From contig JAEOAD010000005.1 in the NCBI GenBank assembly GCA_036365145.1, positions 6,491,001 through 6,555,000 on the forward strand: 64,000 bases of DNA, read 5' to 3'. Of the stretch, positions 10,998-62,571 are shown one piece after another; position 1 is the first letter of the stretch; every line of letters starts with the position of its first letter. The DNA is from Orientallactaga sibirica. Taxonomy: Eukaryota > Chordata > Mammalia > Rodentia > Dipodidae. The position numbers were made by a program, and so were the translations under genes. Under the pieces are notes generated by a model. It was not told where the DNA came from. It was given only the letters and a program-made list of their open reading frames with translations, and did not search any database.

Positions 10998-11609
10998 ACT
11001 CCGACCTGAGCATGCGCACCCTGAGCACGCCCAGCCCAGCCTTGATATGTCCACCGACGTTGCCAGGATTTCAGAATGGACGCGGTTCGTCCACCTCGTC
11101 CTCGTCCATCACCGGGGAGACAGTGGCCATGGTGCACTCCCCGCCCCCTACCCGCCTCACGCACCCTCTCATCCGGCTGGCCTGCAGGCCGCAGAAGGAG
11201 CAGGCCAGCATCGACCGGCTCCCGGACCCCTCCATGGTGCACATCTTCTCCTTCCTGCCCACCAACCAGCTGTGCCGCTGCGCGCGCGTCTGCCGCCGCT
11301 GGTACAACCTGGCCTGGGACCCGCGCCTCTGGAGGACTATCCGCCTGACGGGCGACACCATCCACGTGGACCGTGCCCTCAAGGTGCTCACCCGCAGGCT
11401 GTGCCAGGACACCCCCAACGTCTGTCTCATGCTGGAAACGGTCATTGTCAGCGGCTGCCGGAGGCTCACAGACCGAGGCCTCTACACCATTGCGCAGTGC
11501 TGCCCCGAGCTGCGGCGCCTCGAAGTCTCCGGCTGCTACAATATCTCCAACGAGGCCGTCTTCGACGTGGTATCCCTCTGCCCCAACCTGGAGCACTTGG
11601 ACGTGTCAG
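10998..11609 (+). CDS. FBXL7: FBXL7 exon 3: F-box and first leucine-rich repeats
   Basis: FBXL7 is the substrate-recognition subunit of an SCF (SKP1-CUL1-F-box) ubiquitin ligase. Reported substrates include Aurora A and survivin (family knowledge, not seen here). The exon is 612 nt. Its first two bases complete an Asp codon, then SDLSM follows with Met at 11012 (residue 48 on the human scale). The N-terminal part is Ser/Pro/Thr-rich. The F-box spans about 11204-11345 (residues 112-159), starting ASIDRLPD and including FLPTNQLCRCARVCRRWYNLAWD. Leucine-rich repeats of the cysteine-containing type follow, with VSGCRRLTDRGL, then VSGCYNISNEAV, then LEHLDVSG. The exon ends after the first base of a Gly codon (residue 247), followed by a GTAAAT donor. 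It is visibly GC-rich against AT-rich flanks. From memory it differs from human by only a few residues. It is one exon of a longer CDS, so 11012 is not proposed as the translation start. Confidence 0.97.
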
Positions 11610-17831: not shown

Positions 17832-18064
17832 TTGTAAGTCTGTGAATGCCCTTAAAGACAAACAAGCAGATAGGGAATAGACAAGTAATTCAAGGATCTC
17901 AGAGAAACCTTTTTTTTTTTCCTTGCATGCTTGCTTTGGTGTCTCCATAAGGGTCTTGATAGGAAAGGAGGTCAGCTGGCCAGGCTTGAGGGAAGAGTTC
18001 AGCTTTCCAGTCTTGGCACCGCTGGGACCCAGCTCAGATGGTGACAAGTTGCTCCCTGAGCCTG

Positions 18065-18084
18065 TGTTCTGTGTCTTTGTCCAG
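18065..18084 (+). promoter_or_regulatory. FBXL7: Splice acceptor of last FBXL7 exon
   Basis: A T/G/C-rich stretch ends in TTTGTCCAG at 18084. With this acceptor the split Gly codon becomes G|GG, and C-S-K-V-T-C-I-S-L-T-R follows, exactly as expected after exon 3. An acceptor one base away is not available (no AG), so the frameshift further down cannot be explained by choosing another splice site. Confidence 0.9.
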
Positions 18085-18820
18085 GGTGCTCCAAGGTGAC
18101 GTGTATCAGCTTGACCCGGGAGGCATCCATTAAACTGTCCCGTTGCACGGGAAGCAGATTTCCATCCGCTACCTGGACATGACGGACTGCTTCGTGCTGG
18201 AGGACGAGGGCCTGCACACCATCGCGGCGCACTGCACGCAGCTCACGCACCTGTACCTGCGGCGCTGCGTGCGCCTCACCGACGAGGGCCTCCGCTACCT
18301 GGTCCTCTACTGCCCGTCCATCAAGGAGCTGAGCGTCAGCGATTGCCGCTTCATCAGCGACTTCGGCCTGCGCGAGGTCGCCAAGCTCGAGACCCGCCTG
18401 CGCTACCTGAGCATCGCCCACTGCGGCCGCGTCACCGACGTGGGCGTGCGCTACGTGGCCAAGTTCTGCAGCAAGCTGCGCTACCTCAACGCCAGGGGCT
18501 GCGAGGGCATCACGGACCACGGCGTGGAGTACCTCGCCAAGAACTGCACCAAGCTCAAGTCCCTGGACATCGGCAAGTGCCCTCTGGTCTCGGACACGGG
18601 CCTGGAGTGCCTGGCCCTGAACTGTTTCAACCTTAAGAGGCTGAGCCTCAAGTCGTGCGAGAGCATCACGGGCCAGGGCCTGCAGATCGTGGCCGCCAAC
18701 TGCTTTGACCTGCAGATGCTCAACGTGCAGGACTGCGACGTGTCCGTGGAGGCCCTGCGCTTCGTGAAACGCCACTGCAAACGCTGTGTCATCGAGCACA
18801 CGAACCCTGCCTTCTTCTGA
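18085..18820 (+). CDS. FBXL7: FBXL7 last exon: C-terminal leucine-rich repeats, with a 1-bp frameshift
   Basis: This exon encodes the substrate-binding LRR solenoid of FBXL7 and ends at TGA 18818-18820 after EHTNPAFF. Repeats of about 26 residues recur, for example MTDCFVLEDEGL, LRRCVRLTDEGL, VSDCRFISDFGL, IAHCGRVTDVGV, ARGCEGITDHGV, IGKCPLVSDTGL and LKSCESITGQGL. The first frame runs from CSKVTC to EASIKLS, ending at 18140. The downstream frame starts with PLHGKQIS at 18140. The switch lies in a CCC run where CCCC is expected. Read literally, translation goes off frame and stops at TGA 18180-18182, losing nearly all of these repeats. Adding one base would make the exon exactly 244 codons plus stop, the length needed for a 491-residue protein. 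Everything else in the exon looks intact and conserved, so a sequence error is the simplest explanation. Confidence 0.93.
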
Positions 18821-27271: not shown

Positions 27272-27519
27272 TTCTTTTAAATATATTTTATTTACTTATT
27301 TATCTGAGAGAGAGAGAGAGAGAGAGAGGAAGAGGCACAGAAAGAAGAAGTGGCAGAGAGAAAGAGAGAGAGGGCGCGGCAAGGCCTTCAGCCACTGCAA
27401 ACAAACTCCAGAAGCACAAGCCCCCTTGTGCATCTGGCTTAAATGGGTCCTGGAGAATTGAACCAGGGTCCTTAGGCTTCGCAGGCAAATGCCTTAACCA
27501 CTAAGCCATTTCCCCAGCC
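27272..27519 (-). mobile_element. B2-type SINE, antisense
   Basis: TATATTTTATTTACTTATTT tail side, GA tract, CCACTGCAAACAAACTCCAG, ending CTAAGCCATTTCCCCAGCCC. TTCAATGATTTCT and TTCAATAATTTCT flank it. Confidence 0.95.
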
Positions 27520-62083: not shown

Positions 62084-62132
<49 letters not shown>

Positions 62133-62529
62133 GCACGCACTCAAGCATGCACACTCACACGTATGTGCACCCACATACATATATGAACATGCATCTATAC
62201 ACAACGAATGCACGTACACACACACACACACACACACACACGCATGCACTCAAGCATGCACACTCACACGTACGTGCACCCACATACATATATGAACATG
62301 CATCTATACACAACGAATGCACGTACACACACACACACACACACACATGCACTCAAGCATGCACACTCACACGTACGTGCACTCACATACATATATGAAC
62401 ATGCATCTATACACAACGAATGCACATACACACACACACACACACGCACGCATGCACTCAAGCATGCACACTCACACGTACATGCACCCACATACATATA
62501 TGAACACGCATCCATACACAACGAATGCA

Positions 62530-62571
<42 letters not shown>
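62084..62571. repeat. CA microsatellite grown into a ~105-bp minisatellite
   Basis: Four tandem units start with ACTCAAGCATGCACACTCAC at 62139, 62248, 62351 and 62456 (spacings 109, 103 and 105). Each has a CACATACATATATGAACA core, an ATACACAACGAATGCAC segment and a CA run whose length varies between units. It begins as the tail of the B4-like SINE. Frames across it are Thr/His-rich artefacts. Confidence 0.96.

What the first reader, a model, noticed from the sequence alone, without database searches (positions are those of the whole stretch)
18138..18142. Single-base frameshift breaks the FBXL7 reading frame in the last exon
The frame from the acceptor reads to IKLS (ending 18140). The frame that encodes the rest begins PLHGKQIS one base out of step, at a CCC run where CCCC would keep the frame. 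Exon 3 (612 nt) plus exon 4 (736 nt), after the two bases that complete the split Asp codon, leaves a remainder of two. One added base gives exactly residues 44-491 plus stop. Read literally, translation stops at 18180-18182 and loses nearly half the protein, including most of the LRR solenoid. Every other part of the gene looks intact and strongly constrained, so an assembly or base-calling error is likelier. If real, it would be a truncating allele of a conserved SCF subunit.
Basis: partly seen in the sequence, partly recalled or inferred. Interest (0 to 1): 0.75.

Follow-up and report, generated by a model that had tools for sequence, protein, structure and literature searches.

The report
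Assembly slip in a rodent gene
One missing letter breaks the reading frame of the otherwise intact gene FBXL7 in this rodent genome, and because the same assembly shows the same kind of break in other well-conserved genes, it is most likely a sequencing or assembly error rather than a real mutation.

Summary
FBXL7 exons 3 (10998-11609) and 4 (18085-18820) have intact splice sites. Read literally, the frame stops at TGA 18180-18182; the remaining 226 residues continue one base out of step at a CCC run (18139-18141). Exons 1 and 2 lie upstream on the same contig and are intact. One copy was found in the assembly, with no second haplotype. The read-through protein is 96% identical, over its full length, to its best relatives. 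Five of five lineage-specific changes after the break are conservative. No nearby acceptor restores the full frame.

New evidence for error: among 46 loci of this assembly with potassium-channel or receptor exons, a frame-switch scan finds single-step breaks in KCNA1, HTR1D and HTR5A; KCNA6 looks broken by eye. HTR5A shows the same lesion, three C before G where the frame needs four. That is 3-4 breaks in about 55 kb, so roughly 8-11% of genes of FBXL7's size would be hit by error alone. Verdict: ordinary assembly artefact, very probably. No reads were available, so a recent real truncating allele is unlikely but not excluded.

The parts
10998..11609 (+). FBXL7 coding exon 3 (612 nt; F-box and first LRRs; residues 44-246 plus split codons)
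   Evidence: AG before 10998, GT after 11609; F-box-like PF12937 E=1.1e-17
18085..18820 (+). FBXL7 coding exon 4 (736 nt as assembled), last exon
   Evidence: AG acceptor before 18085, normal C-terminus ...EHTNPAFF and stop at 18818-18820
18087..18140 (+). first part of exon 4, in frame with exon 3 (CSKVTCISLTREASIKLS)
   Evidence: translation; same residues in relatives
18139..18141 (+). the break: run of three C followed by G where the conserved frame needs a run of four
   Evidence: lesion of the same form in HTR5A of this assembly
18140..18820 (+). rest of FBXL7 (residues 266-491 and stop), one base out of step; LRR solenoid
   Evidence: open to stop, LRR_6 E=1.8e-27, ungapped with relatives
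18180..18182 (+). TGA that ends the literal frame, in the last exon
18158..18158 (+). first base after an internal AG acceptor; joined to exon 3 it reads the third frame, like predicted isoforms X2 of sloth and seal; it skips the break but does not restore FBXL7
   Evidence: (P0114, P0115)

Best explanation
It is a one-base deletion error in the assembly (base calling or consensus) inside the last coding exon of an intact, functional FBXL7 gene of a rodent. A short C run before a G in GC-rich DNA was called one base too short and was not corrected. The real gene would be expected to encode the normal 491-residue F-box/LRR protein. Shown: the break, the otherwise intact four-exon gene, one copy, conservation after the break, and comparable breaks elsewhere in the same assembly. 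Inferred: that reads would show the longer run.
For: Apart from one base the gene is intact in all four coding exons over about 385 kb. Protein and DNA searches of the whole assembly give one FBXL7 place. The read-through protein is 96% identical over 100% to P0001 and P0002. 5 of 5 lineage-specific changes after the break are conservative (BLOSUM62 at least 2), against 29% (at least 1) for random nonsynonymous changes (P=0.002), so the downstream frame was under selection until recently or still is. In 46 loci with conserved channel or receptor exons (about 55 kb covered by matches of 60 bits or more), 3 show a frame switch: KCNA1 (L019), HTR1D (L048), HTR5A (L059); FBXL7 exon 4 as positive control is also detected. 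KCNA6 (L020) is broken near its C-terminus by eye. HTR5A has three C before G where its frame needs four, as FBXL7 has. Exon 4 is GC-rich (63%, window 42%).
Against: No raw reads, second assembly or RNA could be examined. The run is only three or four bases, short for a classical homopolymer error. 42 of 46 sampled loci show no break by scan or by eye, so errors are common but not everywhere. The other broken genes could in principle be real losses, though that would need several in one genome. KCNA6 also has a further in-frame stop and diverged residues near its break, so it is a messier case.
Confidence: 0.92

Rival explanations
1. A real, recent truncating allele. The last-exon stop would escape nonsense-mediated decay (established knowledge) and yield a 278-residue protein with the F-box but without 8 of 11 LRRs, which might occupy SKP1 without recognising substrates.
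For: The assembly shows it literally. The review PMC9338262 (passages) says Drosophila Fbxl7 loss-of-function mutants are viable and fertile, so loss need not be lethal.
Against: Intact and conserved sequence on both sides limits its age: at most about 1.8-4.4 million years under assumed neutral rates of 5e-9 to 2e-9 per site and year, which are recalled and not measured. Similar breaks in unrelated conserved genes of the same assembly make error the cheaper cause. [quoted passage not shown]
Confidence: 0.06
2. A functional gene with a genuine shift that is bypassed by programmed ribosomal frameshifting or by alternative splicing.
For: An internal acceptor before 18158 exists, and predicted isoforms X2 of sloth and seal join exon 3 to the equivalent place.
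Against: That acceptor leads into the third frame, not into FBXL7. With any listed acceptor up to 18123, the frame that would lead into the rest stops at or before TAA 18131-18133, and no later listed acceptor (up to 18287) has the right phase (exon 3 donor at 11609 only). The site is no canonical slippery heptamer (judged by eye). All close relatives seen read straight through without a shift.
Confidence: 0.01
3. The window holds a decayed duplicate, and the working FBXL7 lies elsewhere.
For: None found.
Against: Whole-assembly protein and DNA searches give no second FBXL7 place; the next protein match is only 30% identical. The copy has its introns and exons 1 and 2 in order on the same contig.
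Confidence: 0.01

Closest known systems
[quoted passage not shown] ground squirrel P0002
   Same: 96% identity over 100% of the read-through product; same length for residues 44-491; same exon 3 and exon 4 content
   Different: One base short in the last exon as assembled; a handful of conservative replacements
Residual single-base indel errors in long-read assemblies
   Same: A lone one-base break in an otherwise intact conserved gene, repeated in other genes of the same assembly. The abstract of PMC12007338 in a search listing says long-read errors can introduce frameshifts that pseudogenize genes
   Different: The technology behind this assembly is not known to me; the C run is short

Membership tests
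FBXL7 (SCF substrate receptor) | F-box domain followed by C-terminal LRRs | tested here: met
   F-box-like PF12937 E=1.1e-17 in exon 3; LRR_6 E=1.8e-27 in the part after the break
FBXL7 (SCF substrate receptor) | Full-length orthology rather than paralogy | tested here: met
   96% identity over 100% to P0002; next place in the same genome 30%
FBXL7 (SCF substrate receptor) | Uninterrupted reading frame of 491 codons | tested here: not met
   In the assembled sequence the frame stops at residue 278
Assembly or base-calling error | Same kind of break in other conserved genes of the same assembly | tested here: met
   3 of 46 loci by scan, a fourth by eye
Assembly or base-calling error | Reads disagree with the consensus | not testable with these tools
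   no reads held
Pseudogene | Relaxed constraint or several disabling changes | tested here: not met
   one break only; 5 of 5 lineage-specific changes after it conservative
Programmed frameshifting | Slippery site, shift conserved in relatives | tested here: not met
   relatives read through without a shift; no slippery heptamer by eye

The most novel reading that the evidence does not exclude
The deletion is real and recent: this rodent, or the one animal sequenced, carries a last-exon truncating FBXL7 allele that makes an F-box protein stripped of most of its LRRs, a natural dominant-negative candidate in the Fat/Dachsous-linked SCF pathway.
Probability: 0.06. Interest if true: 0.45.

Novelty: not a real feature. 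Interest (0 to 1): 0.06.

Why it matters
As a biological finding it hardly matters. It matters as a warning: about 3-4 breaks in roughly 55 kb of conserved coding sequence mean that gene-loss claims from this assembly need read support.

Tried and rejected
Splice rescue: all AG acceptors from 17900 to 18300 were examined with the exon 3 donor fixed; none restores the full frame. Donor shifts were not examined. Second copy or haplotype: none found. Genome size 2.820 Gb lies between the 2.81 and 2.83 Gb of two jerboa assemblies in PMC9837166 (passages); this is no identification. A search for papers holding both FBXL7 and jerboa found 0.

Frame-switch scan: the first run failed through a wrong program option and gave nothing; it was repeated. 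One search flagged 10 of 46 loci besides the positive control. I dropped 7: L044, L045, L049 and L051 vanish once the four broken query proteins are cut at their breaks; L017, L036 and L052 remain flagged only through short matches (35-39 bits) to one repeat-rich stretch of one query, which I judged to be low complexity. KCNA6 (L020) was not flagged by the scan and is called by eye.

Full report
What is there. Exon 3 (10998-11609) and exon 4 (18085-18820) of FBXL7 have AG/GT and AG boundaries and a normal C-terminus. Joined as assembled, they stop at TGA 18180-18182. The first 18 full codons of exon 4 are in frame with exon 3. From 18140 the normal protein goes on one base back, open for 228 codons including two before the break. 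The C run at 18139-18141 has three bases where the conserved frame needs four.

The rest of the gene. A search of the whole assembly with the first 43 residues found exon 2 (C2055:6243527-6243619) and, at a weak E-value of 9.85, exon 1 (C2055:6124934-6124981), both upstream on the window's contig and strand. Reading them shows an ATG start, GT donors after both and an AG acceptor before exon 2; the TAA reported inside the exon 2 match lies in the intron side. All four coding exons span about 385 kb. The assembly holds one FBXL7 place: the next protein match has 30% identity, and the DNA search gives only the window itself.

Conservation. The best relatives of the read-through product are P0001 (no name given) and P0002 (ground squirrel), each 96% identical over 100%. 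Against P0001 there are 8 differences in 222 residues before the break and 10 in 226 after; against P0002, 9 and 8. Changes that set the window apart from P0001-P0004 number 3 before the break (BLOSUM62 -1, -2, 1) and 5 after (2, 3, 3, 3, 2); random nonsynonymous changes score 1 or more in 29%, P=0.002 for 5 of 5. The numbers are small, and the part before the break does not show the same pattern. In the alignment of 120 listed relatives (of 501 found) 119 have some sequence near the junction and 92 cross it with no gap or insertion; the exceptions are mainly diverged loops and products that end or splice elsewhere.

Splicing. No acceptor from 17900 to 18300 restores the full frame with the known exon 3 donor. 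The acceptor before 18158 gives a third-frame product like isoforms X2 predicted in sloth (P0114) and seal (P0115); it skips the break and is not altered by it.

How reliable is this assembly? A KCNA2-like query fetched 20 loci (L015-L034) and a CHRM2-like query 30 (L035-L064); 4 are duplicates, leaving 46. In KCNA1 (L019) the frame runs into a stop just after ...YFYHRET, while the known C-terminus goes on in the next frame. In HTR1D (L048) the frame breaks after ISAARE and goes on in another frame to the end. In HTR5A (L059) it breaks after SLA, and the sequence has three C before G where the frame needs four, as in FBXL7. KCNA6 (L020) changes frame near its C-terminus, in a diverged stretch. 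The gene names and normal C-termini are recalled. A scan for adjacent matches in different frames finds FBXL7 exon 4 (positive control) and KCNA1, HTR1D and HTR5A; three further flags (L017, L036, L052) come from repeat matches and were dropped. The loci hold about 55.3 kb covered by matches of 60 bits or more. So 3-4 breaks in 55.3 kb, or 0.08-0.11 per FBXL7-sized coding sequence.

Function if it were real. PMC9338262 (passages) gives 11 LRRs, of which exon 3 encodes three with the F-box. The truncated product would keep the F-box and lose most LRRs, which are said to bind substrates. A stop in the last exon is expected to escape nonsense-mediated decay (established knowledge). This is inference only.

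Verdict. Error in the assembly, 0.92. The prediction for reads is plain and could be tested at once by anyone holding them.

Noticed in passing
L019 (KCNA1), L048 (HTR1D), L059 (HTR5A), L020 (KCNA6): Apparent frameshifts in other conserved genes of the same assembly; used here as evidence for error.
   Followed up: yes
window 18158-18636: Internal acceptor in exon 4 leads into a long third frame; predicted isoforms X2 of sloth (P0114) and seal (P0115) read the equivalent frame. Whether this splice is real is unknown.
   Followed up: partly
window 62107-62558: Tandem array of about four 105-109-base units with CA-rich parts.
   Followed up: no
window 27444-27515 (-) and seven places of a recurring motif: tRNA-like match (Rfam) and seven copies of a motif that I recall from jerboa SINEs.
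   Followed up: no
L045 C-terminus (HTR1B-like): The last residues differ from the C-terminus that I recall for HTR1B; real divergence or another slip.
   Followed up: no
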